Source: Chryseobacterium sp. T16E-39
Lineage (GTDB): Bacteria; Bacteroidota; Bacteroidia; Flavobacteriales; Weeksellaceae
Length of the DNA: 64,000 bases
Reading direction: 5' to 3'
Assembly: GCF_002216065.1 (NCBI RefSeq)
Contig: NZ_CP022282.1
Coordinates: 3,224,001 to 3,288,000 of the forward strand
The position numbers were made by a program, and so were the translations under genes. A model generated the notes under the pieces. It had not been told where the DNA came from. It worked only from the letters and a program-made list of their open reading frames with translations, and did not search any database. Below, in pieces: positions 16,910-24,033 of this stretch (within the stretch, counting starts at the first letter, position 1; each line of letters begins with the position of its first letter).

Positions 16910-16915
16910 TTTCCG

Positions 16916-16984
16916 ACTCAGGACGCAAACTTTACCTTTCAGTAATATTTTTTTTACTGAAAGGTATCTTCTATAGTATTTTTG
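16916..16984 (+). promoter_or_regulatory. Direct-repeat operator (LytTR-like) plus -7 box upstream of the TonB receptor
   Basis: ACTCAGGAC (16916-16924) and TTTCAGTAA (16937-16945) are 21 bp apart start to start. A TATTTTTG -7 box follows at 16977-16984, 31 bp downstream. The same arrangement recurs at 20046-20113 and 22543-22611. The LytTR family typically binds two 9-bp repeats with a 12-bp spacer. A 12-bp inverted repeat (16934-16945 with 16954-16965) overlaps the second half-site. Confidence 0.7.
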
Positions 16985-17002
16985 ATCCGAAAATTAATAA
17001 CA

Positions 17003-19246
17003 ATGAAAACTCAAAAACAAAAACTATTATTTCTCTTTGCTTTTCTCTCGTTTCTACTGAGTGTTGCTCAAGTTAAGATTACTGGAAAAGTAACTTATAG
17101 AAATAAAGGGGTTGGGGAAATCAACGTCACTTTAAAGGGAACCTACGATGGAGCAACGACGGATGCAGGAGGTAAATTCTCTTTTGAGACGACAGAAAAA
17201 GGAAACCAGACCCTTACTTTTACCCATCCAAAATACAACGATATTGAAAAATCAATTGTTATTGATAATCAAGATATTTCCGTAGATGCAGAGTTAAAAG
17301 AACAGATCAATGAAATTGATGCAGTGGTGATTTCTGCCGGTTCAATAGAAGCAAGCGACAAGAAAAGAGCGACAGCATTATTGACACCGATAGATGTTTA
17401 TACAACGGCAGGTGCTGATGGGCAAATTTCATCTGCATTAACCTATCTTCCCGGTGTACAAAAAGTAGGAGAATCTGAAGGACTCTTTATTAGAGGCGGT
17501 ACAGGAACGGAATCTAAGATCTTCATGGATGGAAGTCTCATCAACAACTATTTCTCGAGCTCAGTTCCCGGGATTGCGGGAAGAGACCGATTTAATACAT
17601 CGCTTTTTAAAGGAAATGTTTTTTCAAGTGGTGGATATTCTGCATTATATGGGCAGGCTCTTTCCGGTGCATTAATGCTTGAAAGTGTCGATCTGCCAGA
17701 TCAGAGTTCTTATGATTTTGGGATTTCACCGATCTTTTTGAGTGGTGGGTTTCAGAAATTGAGTGAGGATAAAAACCATTCCTACGGGGCAACTTTAGGA
17801 TATTCTCTTTTAAGTCTTATGCAAAAGGTGCTTAATTTCAACACAGATTTTATAAATGCACCAGAGGGGCTTAACGGAGATGCTAATTTTAGAATTAAAA
17901 CAAAATCCGGAGGGTTTTTCAAGTATTACGGAATGTACGATACCAATAAAATGGGAGTAAGAGCAGCAAGTTTGGAGCCGGGATCGGACTATGCACTGGT
18001 TAGAATCAATGGAAAAAATACCTATCACAATTTGTCTTTTAAACAGAAGTTCGGAAAGTATCTGTTGAATACAGGAGCTTCCTATTCGTATAACAGGTCT
18101 GATCTTAATTTTTCCGGGGAAACGAATGATATTGAATCTGCTAAAACCCAACTTTTAACCACAGGTAATTATATCAATTTTAAGGCTGTGTTAGAAAGGA
18201 AGATCAATAAAATAAGTGCAGTACGTGGAGGGTTTGAATTAAATAATACGGACGAAAAACTGAATTTTGAGGACGTAAAAAAACATTATCAGGATTTTAT
18301 ATCTTCTGTTTTTGCAGAAACGGATCTTGGGTTTAGCAACCAACTCTCAGCAAAGATAGGAGTAAGAGCAGAAAATTCTTCCTTTTTAAATAAAAGTAAT
18401 ATAGCTCCCCGCTTAGCATTAGCTTATCGTTTAGCTCAGAACTGGACGACTTCATTTGCCTATGGATTGTTTTATCAAAATCCTGAAAGTAAATATATTA
18501 ATGGCCCGGCCAGCTTGGACTTTCAAAAATCACAGCACTATATTTTACAGTTGCAAAGAACATCTGAAGGGAGAAGCTTAAGATTGGAGGCTTTTTATAA
18601 AAAATATGACCAGCTGATAAAAGTGAAAAACATTGCTAATATTGATAGTCAAAATCAGCCCGTACAGACTGCAATTAATAACGATGGCTATGGATATGCA
18701 AAAGGATTGGAGCTATTTTGGAGAGATAAAAAAACATTTGAAAATATTGATTATTGGATCAGCTACTCGTTTTTGGATTCTAAAAGAGATTTTATGAATT
18801 ATCCCGTTAGCTTAAAACCCAATTTTGCATCTGAACACACCCTTTCAGTAGTGGGCAAAAGATTTATTCCGGAATGGAAATTAGGCGTTAATCTTTCATA
18901 TACCTATTCTAAGGGGCGTCCTTATTATGATATCGCCAGCAAGGATGTCAATGGAAATGTGGTGAACTTTACAAGGAATGAAGGGAGATTAAAAGATTAT
19001 AATGCATTAAATTTAAGTTTTAATTATCTTCCAAATCTCGGAAAAAAAGATTCTAAAGTATTTACTGTTTTCGTATTAAGTGTATCCAATGTGCTGGGGA
19101 CAAAAAATGTATATGGATATAATTTCTCACAAGATGGATCACGAAGTTCTGCTGTAGTTCCTCCGGTAAATACATTTGTTTTTGTTGGTGCATTTATCAG
19201 TTTTGGGGTCGATAAAACCCAGGATGCTATCAATAATAATTTATAA
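17003..19246 (+). CDS. TonB-dependent outer-membrane receptor
   Basis: 747 residues from ATG 17003. This start gives a clean signal peptide (MKTQKQKLLFLFAFLSFLL), whereas the TTG at 16982 lies inside the predicted -7 box. A carboxypeptidase-regulatory-like domain (VKITGKVTYRNKGVGEINVTL, about 25-100) precedes the plug domain (LTYLPGVQKVGESEGLFIRGG, KIFMDGSLI) and a beta-barrel rich in aromatic strands. The substrate is unknown. There is no SusD partner. Position under a LytTR-like operator and next to the kinase cluster suggests signal-controlled uptake. Confidence 0.9.
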   Translation: MKTQKQKLLFLFAFLSFLLSVAQVKITGKVTYRNKGVGEINVTLKGTYDGATTDAGGKFSFETTEKGNQTLTFTHPKYNDIEKSIVIDNQDISVDAELKEQINEIDAVVISAGSIEASDKKRATALLTPIDVYTTAGADGQISSALTYLPGVQKVGESEGLFIRGGTGTESKIFMDGSLINNYFSSSVPGIAGRDRFNTSLFKGNVFSSGGYSALYGQALSGALMLESVDLPDQSSYDFGISPIFLSGGFQKLSEDKNHSYGATLGYSLLSLMQKVLNFNTDFINAPEGLNGDANFRIKTKSGGFFKYYGMYDTNKMGVRAASLEPGSDYALVRINGKNTYHNLSFKQKFGKYLLNTGASYSYNRSDLNFSGETNDIESAKTQLLTTGNYINFKAVLERKINKISAVRGGFELNNTDEKLNFEDVKKHYQDFISSVFAETDLGFSNQLSAKIGVRAENSSFLNKSNIAPRLALAYRLAQNWTTSFAYGLFYQNPESKYINGPASLDFQKSQHYILQLQRTSEGRSLRLEAFYKKYDQLIKVKNIANIDSQNQPVQTAINNDGYGYAKGLELFWRDKKTFENIDYWISYSFLDSKRDFMNYPVSLKPNFASEHTLSVVGKRFIPEWKLGVNLSYTYSKGRPYYDIASKDVNGNVVNFTRNEGRLKDYNALNLSFNYLPNLGKKDSKVFTVFVLSVSNVLGTKNVYGYNFSQDGSRSSAVVPPVNTFVFVGAFISFGVDKTQDAINNNL

Positions 19247-19339
19247 CAAAATAAAAAGATTGTATGTTTAGTTTCATCAACATGAAAATGAAATCATACC
19301 TTTCAATAGAATAAAACAAACCCTAAAAATTAAAAAACA

Positions 19340-19990
19340 ATGAAAAAGTACCTATTAAGTTTTGCTTTAGCTTTTATGAGCTTAACCGCTTTTGCTCAGG
19401 CTGATTATGAAAAAATAATGTCTGAAAAGATTGCAAAAATCGAAACCTGTAAAACAGTGGAAGATTTCCAGACTTTAGCGAATGATTTCCAGAGAATAGG
19501 AAGTAAGGAAAGCGGGAAATGGCTTCCAAGTTATTATGCTGCTTTTTCGTACATACAGAAGGGACGCGTAATGATGAGAGAAGGAAAAACACAGGATCTT
19601 GATGAGGTAGCCAATCAAGCTGACAAACATTTGGCAACTGCTCAGAATCTTGCGGGAGCAGATAATGCAGAGATCCATCTACTAAAAAAAATGGCGTATT
19701 CTTTAAGAATGATGGTGAATCCGCAGCAGCGATATATGACGGATGGGATGAAAGCAGCAGAAGAACTTCAGATAGCGGAGAAATTAGACCCTACAAACCC
19801 AAGAATAGCTTTGATCAAAGCAGAAGATATATACTTCACACCAGAACAGTACGGAGGAAGCAAAACTAAAGGAATTGAAATGTTTAAGAAGGCCGCAGAT
19901 CAATACAATTCATACAAACCGAAATCTTCAATGGATCCAAATTGGGGAAAAGGAGAAGCCGAATATTTCATCAGCCAACCTGCAAAATAG
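19340..19990 (+). CDS. Exported helical protein of unknown function
   Basis: 216 residues with a signal peptide (MKKYLLSFALAFMSLTAFAQ). The rest is helical and TPR-like: ADKHLATAQNLAGADNAEIHLLKKMAYSLR and AAEELQIAEKLDPTNPRIALIKAEDIYF. It is probably periplasmic. It lies 93 bp after the TonB receptor with no clear promoter between, so it may be in the same transcript. A strong terminator follows. The function is not known, though context suggests it works with the receptor or the adjacent kinase. Confidence 0.75.
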   Translation: MKKYLLSFALAFMSLTAFAQADYEKIMSEKIAKIETCKTVEDFQTLANDFQRIGSKESGKWLPSYYAAFSYIQKGRVMMREGKTQDLDEVANQADKHLATAQNLAGADNAEIHLLKKMAYSLRMMVNPQQRYMTDGMKAAEELQIAEKLDPTNPRIALIKAEDIYFTPEQYGGSKTKGIEMFKKAADQYNSYKPKSSMDPNWGKGEAEYFISQPAK

Positions 19991-20011
19991 CCGTAAAATA
20001 TAATATTAATG

Positions 20012-20037
20012 AAGTCTTCCCAATCGGGAAGACTTTT
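20012..20037 (+). terminator. Intrinsic terminator after the exported helical protein
   Basis: A 10-bp stem (AAGTCTTCCC at 20012-20021 with GGGAAGACTT at 20026-20035) is followed by TTTTATTTTG. It separates the receptor unit from the kinase unit. Confidence 0.85.
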
Positions 20038-20045
20038 ATTTTGCC

Positions 20046-20113
20046 TTTCAGTAAAGGAAAATGACGATTCAGTGAAAAATAATTTTTGCTACATTTATTA
20101 TCGACTAATTTTG
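20046..20113 (+). promoter_or_regulatory. Direct-repeat operator (LytTR-like) plus -7 box upstream of the histidine kinase
   Basis: TTTCAGTAA (20046-20054) and ATTCAGTGA (20067-20075) are 21 bp apart start to start. TAATTTTG follows at 20106-20113, 30 bp further on. The first codon at 20131 would then have a leader of about 12 nt. The arrangement matches the operators at 16916 and 22543. Confidence 0.7.
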
Positions 20114-20130
20114 GACCAAGAAATAAACTC

Positions 20131-21465
20131 ATGAAACGCAAAAGCCTTATCGTTCTGCTTTGGGTATCCATAGGAACCGCACTATTTTTCTTTTTAGTTT
20201 TTACAAAAGAGAAAACAATAGAAAATTTCATGCTTTCCTTTCTGATTTCCGGTCTTTATTCCTTTGTCCTGGGAATAGGAAACGGTTTAATTAATGATTA
20301 TTTAAATAAAAAGATTCCCTGGTCAGAAGCGACTACCAGAAGAGCGATTATAAGTGTAGTTTCGATCCTTGTTGCCAATATTATTTTAGTGTATGTATGT
20401 AATTACATTAATTTTGTGATTTTTCAAAGGGCATCAACATCACAAGAGTTCTTTTCAGGAAAATATAATTTTACCAATTGGTTTATGGTGAACATTGCCC
20501 TTCTTATTTCAGCTTTTCTGCATGCCAGAGGATTTATGGAAGAGCTTAAAAAGACCTCCAAAAAAGAAGTCGTAGAGCAGAAACTGATTGCAAAATCAGC
20601 TAATGCCCAGTTTGAAACACTTAAAAACCAATTGGATCCCCATTTTCTGTTCAATTCTTTAAATGTTCTTAGTTCTTTAATTGATGAGAATCCAAAACAG
20701 GCACAGAAGTTTACTTCTTCAATGTCAAAGATTTACAGGTATGTTTTAGAGCAGAAGGATAAAGAACTGGTGACGGTAGAAGATGAGATAGAATTTGCTA
20801 AAATTTATTGCGAATTACTGAAAACCAGGTTTGAAGACAGCGTGGATTTTATTTTTGACGTCCGGAAGGAAGATTATAGGCGATATGTGGTTCCTCTTTC
20901 TCTACAACTGCTGTTGGAGAATTGTATCAAACATAATTATGCAACTTCGTCAAAGCCTTTAATGATCAGGATATTTTCTGAAAATGATACGTTGTGTATA
21001 GAAAATAACCTGCAGATAAGAGAACAGATCAAAGAAAGTGCAGGTATTGGATTGGCTAATATTGTCCAGCGATATTCTCTCCTTACAAAGAGAAATGTTT
21101 TTATTGAAAAATCTGAAGATTATTTTAAAGTAAAACTTCCGGTTCTATCTGATAAACCAAATGATATCAGTATCAAACCTGAAGATCATGATAAAGCGTA
21201 TAAGAGAGCACAGAAAAGAGTAAAAGAGATTAAAGGGTTTTATGCAAACCTGACTTCTTATTGTATTATTATTCCTTTTTTAATTTTTATTAACCTTTAT
21301 ACACAAAGCAATTACCTGTGGTTCTGGTGGCCCTTGTTAGGATGGGGAATAGGAGTTGCCTCTCATGCATTCCAGGTTTTTGGTATAGGTGAGCCATGGC
21401 AGGAAAAAAAGATTCAGGAGATTATGGATAAACAAAAAAAACAAGACAATGGAAACATTCGATGA
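20131..21465 (+). CDS. LytS-type sensor histidine kinase with C-terminal 2TM domain
   Basis: 444 residues from ATG 20131. The longer frame from 20086 begins upstream of the predicted -7 box and is rejected. Four N-terminal membrane helices (about 5-135) are followed by a coiled linker. The His_kinase (PF06580 type) motif QLDPHFLFNSLNVL has phospho-acceptor H171. The ATPase has an N box LLENCIKHN (N264) and a G box AGIGLANIVQRY. Residues about 352-435 form a 2TM domain homologous to the small proteins encoded just downstream. The LytTR response regulator at 23290 is its likely partner. Confidence 0.9.
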   Translation: MKRKSLIVLLWVSIGTALFFFLVFTKEKTIENFMLSFLISGLYSFVLGIGNGLINDYLNKKIPWSEATTRRAIISVVSILVANIILVYVCNYINFVIFQRASTSQEFFSGKYNFTNWFMVNIALLISAFLHARGFMEELKKTSKKEVVEQKLIAKSANAQFETLKNQLDPHFLFNSLNVLSSLIDENPKQAQKFTSSMSKIYRYVLEQKDKELVTVEDEIEFAKIYCELLKTRFEDSVDFIFDVRKEDYRRYVVPLSLQLLLENCIKHNYATSSKPLMIRIFSENDTLCIENNLQIREQIKESAGIGLANIVQRYSLLTKRNVFIEKSEDYFKVKLPVLSDKPNDISIKPEDHDKAYKRAQKRVKEIKGFYANLTSYCIIIPFLIFINLYTQSNYLWFWWPLLGWGIGVASHAFQVFGIGEPWQEKKIQEIMDKQKKQDNGNIR

Positions 21466-21748
21466 AAATGATATTCGATATCAACAGGCTAAAAGGCAAG
21501 TAGAGCGATTAAGGGGTTTTTACGGACATTTATTCTCTTATATTGCTGTAAATATTTTGATTGCTTATTTTAATTACACCAATTTAAAGCCCGGAGAAAG
21601 TTATTTTGAGTTTAAAAATTTCTTTACCGCAACATTTTGGGGAATAGGGCTTCTGGCGCATGCATTATTTGTTTTTTTACCCAATATCAGTTTTGCAAAG
21701 AAATGGGAAGAAAAGAAAATTAAAGAATTTATGGATAAGAATAAATGA
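21449..21748 (+). CDS. 2TM-domain protein
   Basis: 99 residues. The motif AKRQVERLRGFYGHLFSYIAV, two hydrophobic helices, GIGLLAHALFVF and KKWEEKKIKEFMDK define the 2TM domain (PF13239 type). The ATG at 21449 overlaps the kinase 3' end by 17 bp in another frame, indicating translational coupling. It is related to the kinase's own C-terminal domain and to the proteins at 22646 and 22929. Its role is unknown. Membrane association with the kinase is plausible. Confidence 0.85.
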   Translation: METFDENDIRYQQAKRQVERLRGFYGHLFSYIAVNILIAYFNYTNLKPGESYFEFKNFFTATFWGIGLLAHALFVFLPNISFAKKWEEKKIKEFMDKNK

Positions 21749-21749
21749 A

Positions 21750-21860
21750 AAAGCAAAATTGCCAATTTGCAAAATCGTAAAATTGCTAAAATGTGATATT
21801 CATTTATGATTCAGCAATTCGACAATTTTACAATTTTACGGTTTCACAATTAAGCTTTTC
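21750..21860. repeat. Intergenic AT-rich inverted-repeat element, copy 2
   Basis: The gap carries many copies of AAAATTGC- and CAATTTTAC-like words in opposite orientation. CAATTCGACAATTTTACAATT at 21815-21835 matches 20 of 21 bases at 2675-2695. The arms are imperfect but would fold extensively in RNA. It splits the 2TM gene from the ICMT-like gene. Confidence 0.5.
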
Positions 21861-21896
21861 GGCTTTTTTGCCCTTTTACCAAAAAACGATAATACG

Positions 21897-22460
21897 ATGA
21901 ATTTACAAATACTATTCTACGCTTCAATGGGAGCTTGGTTATTGACTGAGATCATTTACAAGCAAAAGCTGAAATCTGCAGATAACGATCAGAAGAAAGA
22001 CCAATCCACACTTAACCTACTCTGGGTTGTTATTATTCTGTCAATTGCTGGAGCTGTGACCACTTCAAATATGATTAGTTTTCCTATTAGTGATTCTGGC
22101 TGGATCTTTTATCTTGGTGAAGGTTTGATTCTTTTAGGAATCGTTTTTAGACTAATTATTATCAGATCTTTAGGGAAGTATTTCACAGTTGATGTTACCA
22201 TAAAAGAAGATCATAAAATTAAAAAGGAAGGTTTCTACAGATACCTTAGACATCCATCTTATGCTTTTTCATTATTAACTTTTCTCGGACTAGGCTTATA
22301 TTTAAATAATTGGCTTTCCCTGGTCATCGCATTTATTCCGCCTTTTTTAGCATTTAGTTACAGGATTAAAATAGAAGAGCAAGTTCTTATACAGCGATTT
22401 GGTGAAGAATACGTGCAGTATAGAAAAATCACAAAGAAATTGATCCCTTTTTTGTACTAA
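21897..22460 (+). CDS. ICMT-like (isoprenylcysteine carboxyl methyltransferase family) membrane methyltransferase
   Basis: 187 residues with about five membrane helices. The family motif is clear: SLGKYFTVDVTIKEDHKIKKEG, YRYLRHPSYAF, then IKIEEQVLIQRFGEEYVQYR near the C-terminus. In eukaryotes the family methylates prenylated cysteines. Bacterial members act on unknown lipids or small molecules. It sits inside the 2TM/LytTR cluster, between two 2TM genes, and ends before a terminator. The function in the cluster is inference only. Confidence 0.8.
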   Translation: MNLQILFYASMGAWLLTEIIYKQKLKSADNDQKKDQSTLNLLWVVIILSIAGAVTTSNMISFPISDSGWIFYLGEGLILLGIVFRLIIIRSLGKYFTVDVTIKEDHKIKKEGFYRYLRHPSYAFSLLTFLGLGLYLNNWLSLVIAFIPPFLAFSYRIKIEEQVLIQRFGEEYVQYRKITKKLIPFLY

Positions 22461-22508
22461 AAAGGGAAAACGGAAAAGACGAAAGTGTTACATTTCTTAG
22501 GTATAAAT

Positions 22509-22539
22509 AAATCCTGATTTCAATGAAGTCGGGATTTTT
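22509..22539 (+). terminator. Intrinsic terminator after the ICMT-like gene
   Basis: A 13-bp stem with two T-G pairs (22509-22521 with 22525-22537) and an AAT loop is followed by a T run. It ends immediately before the operator at 22543. Confidence 0.6.
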
Positions 22540-22542
22540 GCA

Positions 22543-22611
22543 ACTCAGAACCGAAATTCAACGGTTCAGTAAGATATAGTTGATTTGAAGATGTTTTTCA
22601 GCATACATTTG
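22543..22611 (+). promoter_or_regulatory. Direct-repeat operator (LytTR-like) plus -7 box upstream of the 2TM pair and response regulator
   Basis: ACTCAGAAC (22543-22551) and GTTCAGTAA (22564-22572) are 21 bp apart start to start. TACATTTG follows at 22604-22611, 31 bp further on. The first downstream gene starts at 22646. This is the third copy of the arrangement and would make the response regulator autoregulated. Confidence 0.7.
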
Positions 22612-22645: not shown

Positions 22646-22945
22646 ATGGAAACACTATCATTCAACAAAGAAAACCGCGCGTATGAAAAAGCGGCAAAGA
22701 GAGTAAAAGAACTTAAAGGATTTTATGGAAACCTTACATCTTATTGTTTAGTCATTCCCTTTTTATTCGTTTTAAACCTTTTAACATCACCTTATCATTT
22801 ATGGTTTTACTGGCCAATGCTAGGCTGGGGGATCGGTCTCGTGGCTCATGGAATAAATGTTTTTGGAATTGGAAAAGACTGGGAAGAGAAGAAAATCAAA
22901 GAACTAATGGAAGCAGACAAAAGAAATCATGGAAAAATACTTTAA
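22646..22945 (+). CDS. 2TM-domain protein
   Basis: 99 residues. It is closest to the kinase's C-terminal domain: AAKRVKELKGFYGNLTSYCLVIPF, two membrane helices, PMLGWGIGLVAHGINVFGIG and WEEKKIKELMEA. It begins the third operator-controlled unit. The next gene overlaps its end by 17 bp. Confidence 0.85.
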   Translation: METLSFNKENRAYEKAAKRVKELKGFYGNLTSYCLVIPFLFVLNLLTSPYHLWFYWPMLGWGIGLVAHGINVFGIGKDWEEKKIKELMEADKRNHGKIL

Positions 22946-23225
22946 TACCAATACGATGGATTACAATCAGGCATACGAACGAGTGAGAAAGCTGAAAAAC
23001 TTTTACAAAAGCCTTTCTTGGTATGGTATAATAGCAGGAATCCTGTTTTTCAATGAGTATTTTGAACATGGAACAATAGATTTTTCATTTTATCATGGCT
23101 CAATACTTCTGTTAATCTGGGGAATTATTCTGGTTATAAAAGGGGTGAAGTTATTTGTATTTGACTCTTCCTGGGAGCAAAGAATTTTAGATAAAGAACT
23201 CAGAAAAAGCAAACCAAAATTATAA
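22929..23225 (+). CDS. 2TM-domain protein (divergent)
   Basis: 98 residues. AYERVRKLKNFYKSLSWYG, two hydrophobic helices and SSWEQRILDKELRKS follow the 2TM pattern, but the inter-helix WGIG segment is altered. The start at 22929 overlaps the previous gene. An alternative ATG at 22956 would avoid overlap and keep the whole domain, so the exact start is uncertain. It lies 64 bp before the response regulator. Confidence 0.75.
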   Translation: MEKYFNTNTMDYNQAYERVRKLKNFYKSLSWYGIIAGILFFNEYFEHGTIDFSFYHGSILLLIWGIILVIKGVKLFVFDSSWEQRILDKELRKSKPKL

Positions 23226-23289: not shown

Positions 23290-24033
23290 ATGATCAAAAC
23301 TGTCATTATTGAAGATGAAAAGCCGGCTTCAAGGAAATTAGAAAGAATGCTCAGCATATTTCCTGACATTGAGGTTGTTGCGAAAATTGAATCAGTAGAA
23401 GAGGGAGTTGCCTGGTTTTCTGAAAATGAACATCCTCAGCTTATATTTTCGGATATTGTTTTAGGTGATGGATTATCTTTCGATATTTTTGAAAAGGTGC
23501 CTTCAAAAGGGTTTATTATTTATACGACAGCTTTTGACCAGTATACATTAAAGGCATTTAAATTAAATAGCATTGACTATTTATTAAAACCAATTTTGGA
23601 CGAAGATCTAGCGGGCGCGATAGAGAAATTCAAATCATTTCTTCCTTCTGACAATTCGGTGAGTGGACAGGATATTAAGCAACTAATCAAAAAGGATAAA
23701 TCCACTCTCTCCAGGATTTTGGTTAAGATAGGATATAATCTGAAAATCATTCAAACTCAGGAGATAAGCTGTTTTTTCAGTGAGAATAAAATTGTTTATC
23801 TTCAAACTAAAGACAGAACATATCCTTCAGATTTTACATTGGATGATCTGGAGGAGACTTTAGAAGGTAAAAAATTCTTCCGGGTGAACAGGCAATTTAT
23901 AATCAATTCAGATTATATTAACAACATTCACACTTCACCTAATTATAAGGTAGAATTGGAATTTCAGCCCAGTGAAGAAATTACAGTAAGCAGGGATCGG
24001 GTTAAAGATTTTAAAGATTGGCTTGTGGGTTAA
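23290..24033 (+). CDS. LytTR-family response regulator
   Basis: 247 residues. The receiver domain has IIEDE at 6-10, phospho-acceptor D55 in FSDIVLGD, T80 in IIYTTAF and K100 in YLLKPI. The C-terminal LytTR DNA-binding domain spans about 145-245 (SRILVKIGYNLKIIQ, ENKIVYLQTKDRTYPSDFTL, FFRVNRQFIINSDYI). It is the natural partner of the kinase at 20131. LytTR proteins bind paired 9-bp repeats about two helical turns apart, and three such sites occur in the cluster. Confidence 0.95.
   Translation: MIKTVIIEDEKPASRKLERMLSIFPDIEVVAKIESVEEGVAWFSENEHPQLIFSDIVLGDGLSFDIFEKVPSKGFIIYTTAFDQYTLKAFKLNSIDYLLKPILDEDLAGAIEKFKSFLPSDNSVSGQDIKQLIKKDKSTLSRILVKIGYNLKIIQTQEISCFFSENKIVYLQTKDRTYPSDFTLDDLEETLEGKKFFRVNRQFIINSDYINNIHTSPNYKVELEFQPSEEITVSRDRVKDFKDWLVG

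What the first reader, a model, noticed from the sequence alone, without database searches (positions are those of the whole stretch)
16916..22611. Three promoters share a LytTR-geometry direct repeat at fixed distance from the -7 box
Pairs of 9-bp half-sites with core YTCAG are found at 16916/16937, 20046/20067 and 22543/22564, each exactly 21 bp apart start to start. In each, the second half-site ends 30 or 31 bp before an exact TAnnTTTG box (16977, 20106, 22604). The three sites precede the TonB receptor, the kinase and the 2TM/response-regulator unit. This fits direct activation by the LytTR regulator at 23290, including positive autoregulation. I found no similar pair elsewhere in the window by eye.
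Basis: partly seen in the sequence, partly recalled or inferred. Interest (0 to 1): 0.78.

Follow-up and report, generated by a model that had tools for sequence, protein, structure and literature searches.

The report
Conserved LytTR operator at three promoters
Three promoters in this Chryseobacterium-like genome carry the same conserved paired DNA signal, most likely the landing site of the neighbouring LytTR response regulator, which would switch on an outer-membrane receptor and its own sensor and regulator genes.

Summary
Three YTCAG pairs 21 bp apart, each 33-34 bp before TAnnTTTG, lie upstream of the TonB receptor, the 2TM histidine kinase and the 2TM/LytTR unit; 200 simulated windows give 0.01 such sites on average. 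In 80 related loci the pair, with the core widened to YTCRG, precedes TonB in 75 of 76, kinase in 67 of 79 and 2TMb in 78 of 79, and any other cluster gene in at most 4 of 77. A profile built from other genomes ranks exactly these three first in the genome, with a gap. Outside genes the 21-bp pair recurs in 34 of 40 loci of other genera of the family and 16 of 20 of a second family (14-bit threshold), other tested spacings in at most 5 and 1. In 14 of 20 fetched places a TonB or HypT homolog away from the kinase carries the site. The half-site resembles that of E. coli BtsR, with the same 21-bp period, but not strongly enough to single it out there. Best reading: operators of the cognate LytTR regulator, probably activating, with feedback on its own genes. 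Binding, activation and signal are inferred. New member of a known kind.

The parts
16913..16921 (+). site 1, first (distal) half-site
16934..16942 (+). site 1, second (proximal) half-site
16977..16984 (+). TATTTTTG, putative -7 box of the TonB receptor promoter
17003..19246 (+). TonB-dependent receptor with N-terminal CarboxypepD_reg-like domain
19340..19990 (+). HypT: 216-aa protein, no Pfam or NCBIfam match; follows TonB; has its own site in some other genera
20043..20051 (+). site 2, first half-site
20064..20072 (+). site 2, second half-site
20106..20113 (+). TAATTTTG, putative -7 box of the histidine kinase promoter
20131..21465 (+). LytS-type histidine kinase (PF06580) with C-terminal 2TM domain
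21446..21748 (+). 2TM protein a (no site of its own)
21897..22460 (+). ICMT/PEMT-family methyltransferase-like membrane protein (no site of its own)
22540..22548 (+). site 3, first half-site
22561..22569 (+). site 3, second half-site
22604..22611 (+). TACATTTG, putative -7 box of the 2TM/response-regulator unit
22646..22945 (+). 2TM protein b
22929..23225 (+). 2TM protein c
23290..24033 (+). LytTR response regulator, presumed binder of the three sites

Best explanation
The three sites are operators of the two-component LytTR response regulator encoded at 23290. Each is a direct repeat of RCNNYTCRG (the two N mostly C or G, then A or G), two helical turns (21 bp) apart, so that two regulator molecules can bind one face of the DNA just upstream of the -33 region of a Bacteroidetes-type promoter whose TAnnTTTG box starts 33-34 bp after the second half-site. 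Phosphorylated regulator, made by the 2TM histidine kinase, most likely recruits RNA polymerase to three transcription units: TonB receptor (with HypT), kinase (with 2TMa and the methyltransferase-like gene), and 2TMb-2TMc-regulator. That is a small regulon with positive feedback on its own sensor and regulator. Shown: the sites, their conservation, spacing and placement, their rank in the genome, and their presence at TonB/HypT homologs that lie elsewhere. Inferred: the identity of the binder, operon limits, phosphorylation, activation and the signal.
For: Sites real. Orthologous conservation at one spacing: TonB 75/76, kinase 67/79, 2TMb 78/79, against AraC 0/54, HypT 4/77, 2TMa 1/79, ICMT 0/73, 2TMc 1/80, regulator 1/80. 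A C three bases before the core, not part of the search pattern, is kept in 98-100% of the sites in both halves at all three promoters. Model R1, built from 60 sites of other genomes, ranks exactly the three window sites first in the 4.87-Mb genome (25.2, 22.8, 20.9 bits; next 15.9); of the 17 weaker matches only one has a box on its own strand, and it lies in a 1009-codon open frame. Outside genes, pairs of 14 bits or more at 21 bp: 34 of 40 loci of other genera, 16 of 20 of a second family; seven other spacings at most 5 and 1. TonB/HypT homologs elsewhere keep the site. Model hits in 62 of 87 family genomes with a kinase match, 4 of 33 without (Fisher p 4.6e-9, not corrected for relatedness). 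Best NCBIfam models of the regulator are BtsR and LytR, both under cut-off; the YehT fragment of the yjiY promoter holds ACCGCTTA and ACCACTCA 21 bp apart by my reading. The TonB site does not depend on the AraC gene: 46/46 with it nearby, 29/30 without.
Against: No binding or expression data. 20 LytTR-domain genes over the cut-off, so a paralog could bind. LytTR sites are said not to share a common consensus (PMC4847170 passage). The core was widened from YTCAG to YTCRG after seeing the relatives; T, C and G of the core are invariant by construction. The pair is missing upstream of 12 of 79 kinase genes, 1 of 76 TonB and 1 of 79 2TMb. 25 of 87 family genomes with a kinase match gave no model hit and 4 of 33 without did. 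The R1 search did not report the E. coli btsT promoter; as a weight matrix the btsT site is best in its own 3-kb locus, but two unrelated places in 17 kb of other E. coli DNA score higher. A small excess at 16 and 31 bp in the other genera (13 and 10 of 40 at 10 bits) is unexplained. The direction of regulation rests on position alone.
Confidence: 0.83

Rival explanations
1. The sites are LytTR operators, but the main regulator is one of the other LytTR paralogs, or several share them.
For: 20 LytTR-domain genes over the cut-off in the genome.
Against: Sites lie beside this regulator across Chryseobacterium and near its kinase in other genera; sites and kinase co-occur (62/87 against 4/33); no comparable site with a box was found elsewhere in the genome.
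Confidence: 0.1
2. The regulator binds the sites but represses, i.e. negative autoregulation.
For: LytTR proteins can repress (AgrA at bsaA, from a site downstream of the promoter; passage); binding alone gives no sign.
Against: The repeats end upstream of the -33 region, as in LytTR-activated promoters (passages); TonB promoters lack a TTG 16-24 bp before the box in 69 of 73, as expected of activator-dependent promoters (inference).
Confidence: 0.1
3. The TonB site belongs to the adjacent AraC-family regulator (16007).
For: An AraC gene ends within 400 bp upstream of the receptor gene in 46 of 76 loci; AraC proteins also bind direct repeats about 21 bp apart (recalled).
Against: The pair is present in 29 of 30 loci without a nearby AraC gene, and the same motif precedes the kinase and 2TM genes.
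Confidence: 0.02
4. Chance, or shared ancestry of non-functional intergenic DNA.
For: The pattern was found by eye, the core was widened afterwards, and related genomes are not independent.
Against: Simulation mean 0.01 against 3; conservation at 21 bp in two families; the same motif at three different promoters and at genes lying elsewhere.
Confidence: 0.01

Closest known systems
E. coli BtsS/BtsR (YehU/YehT), LytS/LytTR system acting on btsT (yjiY)
   Same: LytS-type kinase (PF06580) and LytTR regulator; BtsR is the best NCBIfam model hit; regulators 26% identical end to end; ACCGCTTA/ACCACTCA with a 21-bp period in the YehT fragment (my reading of the oligo), in register with our profile.
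   Different: BtsS has 5TM-LYT and GAF domains, ours a C-terminal 2TM domain; the E. coli target is a pyruvate transporter, not a TonB receptor; the regulator scores under the BtsR cut-off (110 of 246 bits).
LytTR Regulatory Systems (LRS) of S. mutans and LRS-like operons of Bacteroides (PMC6193735, passages)
   Same: Direct repeats 11-13 bp apart, often 10 bp upstream of -35; Bacteroides examples sit 11 bp before TGTA-19-TATCTTTG, the layout seen here; positive autoregulation shown for HdrR.
   Different: LRS pair a regulator with a membrane protein, called an inhibitor in S. mutans; here there is a histidine kinase; half-sites differ; no TonB receptor.
S. aureus AgrA at P2/P3 (PMC4227749, passages)
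   Same: LytTR dimer on direct repeats upstream of promoters of its own operon region.
   Different: Firmicute promoter; quorum-sensing circuit and lack of an outer-membrane receptor are recalled.

Membership tests
LytTR-type operator | two 9-11 bp repeats separated by 11-13 bp (PMC4847170, passage) | tested here: met
   9-bp half-sites, 12-bp spacer, 21-bp period
LytTR-type operator | fits the broad LytTR half-site consensus [TA][AC][CA]GTTN[AG][TG] (recalled) | tested here: inconclusive
   variants such as ACCGTTCGG fit fully, but many sites have A instead of G at the fourth base and C instead of T at the fifth
LytTR-type operator | lies just upstream of the -35/-33 element | tested here: met
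   box 33-34 bp after the second core in 73/76, 65/79, 78/79; a TTG starts 10 bp after the second core in 78/78 2TMb promoters; a TTG 16-24 bp before the box exists in 41/66 kinase but only 4/73 TonB promoters
LytTR-type operator | bound by a LytTR protein | not testable with these tools
   needs gel shift or ChIP
LytS/LytTR two-component system | LytS-type kinase and receiver-LytTR regulator in one locus | tested here: met
   PF06580; PF00072 plus PF04397; receiver residues D9, D55, K100 kept in the alignment with BtsR (their roles recalled)
BtsR proper | scores above the NCBIfam BtsR equivalog cut-off | tested here: not met
   110.4 bits against 246
LytTR Regulatory System (LRS) | regulator paired with a membrane protein, no histidine kinase (as I understand the passages) | tested here: not met
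   a histidine kinase is encoded in the cluster

The most novel reading that the evidence does not exclude
A LytS/LytTR operator code (ACCRYTCRG-type half-sites, 21-bp period) has been kept since before Bacteroidota and Proteobacteria split, and in Flavobacteriales it drives a dedicated uptake circuit in which an outer-membrane TonB receptor and a partner protein feed a signal to a 2TM kinase that raises receptor, kinase and regulator together.
Probability: 0.25. Interest if true: 0.65.

Novelty: new member of a known kind. Interest (0 to 1): 0.5.

Why it matters
This genome has 20 LytTR-domain genes over the cut-off, yet in the literature searches made here (listings only) I saw no operator described for a kinase-coupled LytTR regulator of this phylum; most subscription journals are not in the library. 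The result gives a precise, testable site, a small candidate regulon (TonB receptor, HypT, a DUF2141 protein in some genomes, kinase, 2TM proteins, regulator) and a way to find the targets of a system whose signal is unknown. That TonB/HypT homologs lying elsewhere keep the site suggests that they are the true output.

Tried and rejected
Extra model hits downstream of the regulator, inspected in 12 Chryseobacterium loci: no box follows, and they correspond by position to the opposite-strand gene after the regulator, so I take them as coding coincidences. Model hits inside the TonB gene of second-family loci (a YNSVF-type stretch) are coding coincidences; the count outside open frames of 100 codons or more is 16 of 20 at 14 bits and 18 of 20 at 12 bits. 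Own-genome matches after the first three (17): one of 17 has a box on its own strand, in a 1009-codon open frame. E. coli btsT promoter: not reported by the model search; by weight matrix best in its own 3-kb locus but third in 20 kb of E. coli DNA, so the cross-phylum link is at consensus level only. My first script score of the btsT oligo was low because the typed oligo stops one base short of the 36-column window. TonB ligand: no PDB sequence match, no NCBIfam match. Of the 20 places, two (L222, L223) precede an alpha/beta hydrolase gene (Pfam run on L222 only) and two (L224, L227) show no pair-plus-box. Kraxenberger 2012 (PMC3416263) is not held.
Full report
OBSERVATION. By script the window has three YTCAG-N16-YTCAG pairs followed by TAnnTTTG at 30-38 bp and no fourth on either strand. 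In 200 first-order Markov simulations of the window the mean is 0.01 and the maximum 1. The genome is one 4.87-Mb contig; the window is bases 3224001-3288000. By the regulator's closest listed relative it is Chryseobacterium-like (96% identity to C. paridis).

ANATOMY. The cluster reads AraC-family gene, TonB receptor (CarboxypepD_reg-like domain, plug), HypT (216 aa, no family), LytS-type kinase with a C-terminal 2TM domain, 2TM protein, ICMT/PEMT-family protein, two more 2TM proteins, receiver-LytTR regulator. The regulator keeps D9, D55 and K100 of the receiver in the alignment with BtsR.

CONSERVATION IN THE GENUS. The 80 best relatives of the regulator were fetched with flanks (256 candidates confirmed, 80 kept); the cluster is syntenic in most of them, with exceptions such as L056, L073 and L074. 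Reading the core as YTCRG, pairs at 21 bp occur within 250 bp upstream of TonB in 75 of 76, kinase in 67 of 79 and 2TMb in 78 of 79 loci; for AraC 0 of 54, HypT 4 of 77, 2TMa 1 of 79, ICMT 0 of 73, 2TMc 1 of 80, regulator 1 of 80; no other spacing from 12 to 35 bp is found in more than 3 loci upstream of any gene. With TCAG in both halves the counts are only 40 of 76, 11 of 79 and 18 of 80 (one of the 18, L049, is at another place), so the core had to be widened, and that was done after seeing the sequences. A box starts 33 or 34 bp after the second core in 73 of 76, 65 of 79 and 78 of 79. Column counts on the 73, 66 and 78 sites with a box in reach (71, 64 and 71 distinct) give RCNNYTCRG, the two N mostly C or G and A or G. 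The T, C and G of the core are invariant by construction of the search, but the C three bases before it is not and is kept in 98-100% in both halves of all three promoters.

GENOME-WIDE. A sequence-only model of 60 sites from other genomes (20 per promoter, chosen for diversity; it includes close relatives such as L009-L011) places the three window sites first in the genome at 25.2, 22.8 and 20.9 bits; the fourth has 15.9 bits, lies in an open frame of 686 codons and has no box. The tool scored 150 of 4145 first-look candidates. Of the 17 weaker matches one has a box on its own strand, in a 1009-codon open frame. The regulon therefore looks confined to this cluster, although the genome has 20 LytTR-domain genes over the family cut-off.

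OUTSIDE THE GENUS. The kinase has a match at E 1e-60 or better in 87 of 120 family genomes, 75 of them outside the genus. In 40 loci from 40 of these 75 genomes, 25 have an exact pair-plus-box on the kinase strand; in 23 of the 25 one lies within 300 bp of the start of the kinase, TonB or HypT (counted from the printout; L181 and L194 are the others). By weight matrix 35 of 40 have a half-site pair of 14 bits or more at 21 bp, against at most 6 for any other spacing from 12 to 32 on the same strand and 5 on the opposite strand; outside open frames of 100 codons or more 34 of 40, against at most 5 for the seven other spacings tried. The model hits 66 of the 120 genomes at E 0.02: 62 of the 87 with a kinase match (12 of them of the genus) and 4 of the 33 without (G004, G031, G033, G076); Fisher p 4.6e-9, not corrected for relatedness. 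In a second, unnamed family of the order (f3, by its genes probably Flavobacteriaceae; 27 matching genomes among 55) 20 loci were fetched: the 21-bp pair of 14 bits or more is in 17 of 20 raw, against at most 4 for another spacing on the same strand, and outside open frames in 16 of 20 at 14 bits and 18 of 20 at 12 bits, against at most 1 and 2 for the seven other spacings tried; L234 and L245 have none. These sites lie before TonB, before a DUF2141 or HypT gene, before the kinase, or (L248) after the kinase and before a 2TM gene (by eye; DUF2141 by Pfam in L231).

SITE FOLLOWS GENE. Twenty model hits away from the kinase's own site were fetched from 18 genomes. Eighteen of 20 have pair-plus-box; 16 of these precede homologs of TonB and/or HypT, two an alpha/beta hydrolase gene; two of the 20 have no pair-plus-box. 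In 14 of the 16 the TonB or HypT homolog lies about 8 kb or more from the kinase or on another contig (not so in L211 and L220). In 9 of the 16 both TonB and HypT have their own site; in several others the fetched stretch cuts TonB off. This is the strongest sign that the receptor pair is the true target.

MECHANISM. Direct repeats two helical turns apart that end about 10 bp before the -33 region are the layout of LytTR-activated promoters: PMC4847170 (passages) gives 9-11 bp repeats with 11-13 bp spacers but says there is no common consensus; PMC6193735 (passages) gives a bias for 10 bp upstream of -35 and Bacteroides examples 11 bp before TGTA-19-TATCTTTG, with positive autoregulation shown for HdrR; PMC4227749 (passages) describes AgrA, which can also repress from a site downstream of a promoter. 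A TTG 16-24 bp before the box is absent in 69 of 73 TonB promoters, 25 of 66 kinase promoters and 0 of 78 2TMb promoters: the receptor promoter should depend most on an activator, the regulator's own promoter least. Activation is inference.

RELATION TO BtsR. The best NCBIfam model of the regulator is BtsR (110 bits, cut-off 246), LytR next (109 of 375); it is 26% identical to E. coli BtsR. The YehT fragment of the yjiY promoter has ACCGCTTA and ACCACTCA 21 bp apart by my reading, in register with our profile and the best place in its 3-kb locus by weight matrix. Against a strong claim: the model search did not report it, and two unrelated E. coli places score higher.

ALTERNATIVES. The AraC neighbour is very unlikely (29 of 30 loci without it nearby keep the site). 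A paralog as binder, and repression instead of activation, remain open at about 10% each.

LITERATURE. Ten searches; in their listings, and in passages of five papers, I saw no description of this regulon or operator. Most subscription journals are not in the library.

Noticed in passing
16935-16964: The second half-site of the TonB promoter is one arm of a perfect 11-bp inverted repeat (CCTTTCAGTAA/TTACTGAAAGG) reaching towards the box; by a 7-of-8 test 23 of 73 Chryseobacterium TonB promoters have such an inverted copy (control 0), none of the kinase or 2TMb promoters. Perhaps a third, reversed half-site or a second regulator's operator.
   Followed up: partly
L222 1068; L223 reverse strand 1014: In two genomes of another genus the same site with box precedes an alpha/beta hydrolase gene (Pfam on L222; L223 alike by eye), a possible extra regulon member.
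   Followed up: partly
L231, L232, L233, L237, L238: In second-family genomes the site lies before a small gene; in L231 it is a DUF2141 protein by Pfam, the others look similar by eye.
   Followed up: partly
G000 whole genome: 20 LytTR-domain genes over the Pfam cut-off; the operators of the others are unknown and the model of this report does not find them.
   Followed up: no
L169-L208, L229-L248: A small excess of half-site pairs at 31 bp (and 16 and 26 bp) besides 21 bp, unexplained.
   Followed up: no
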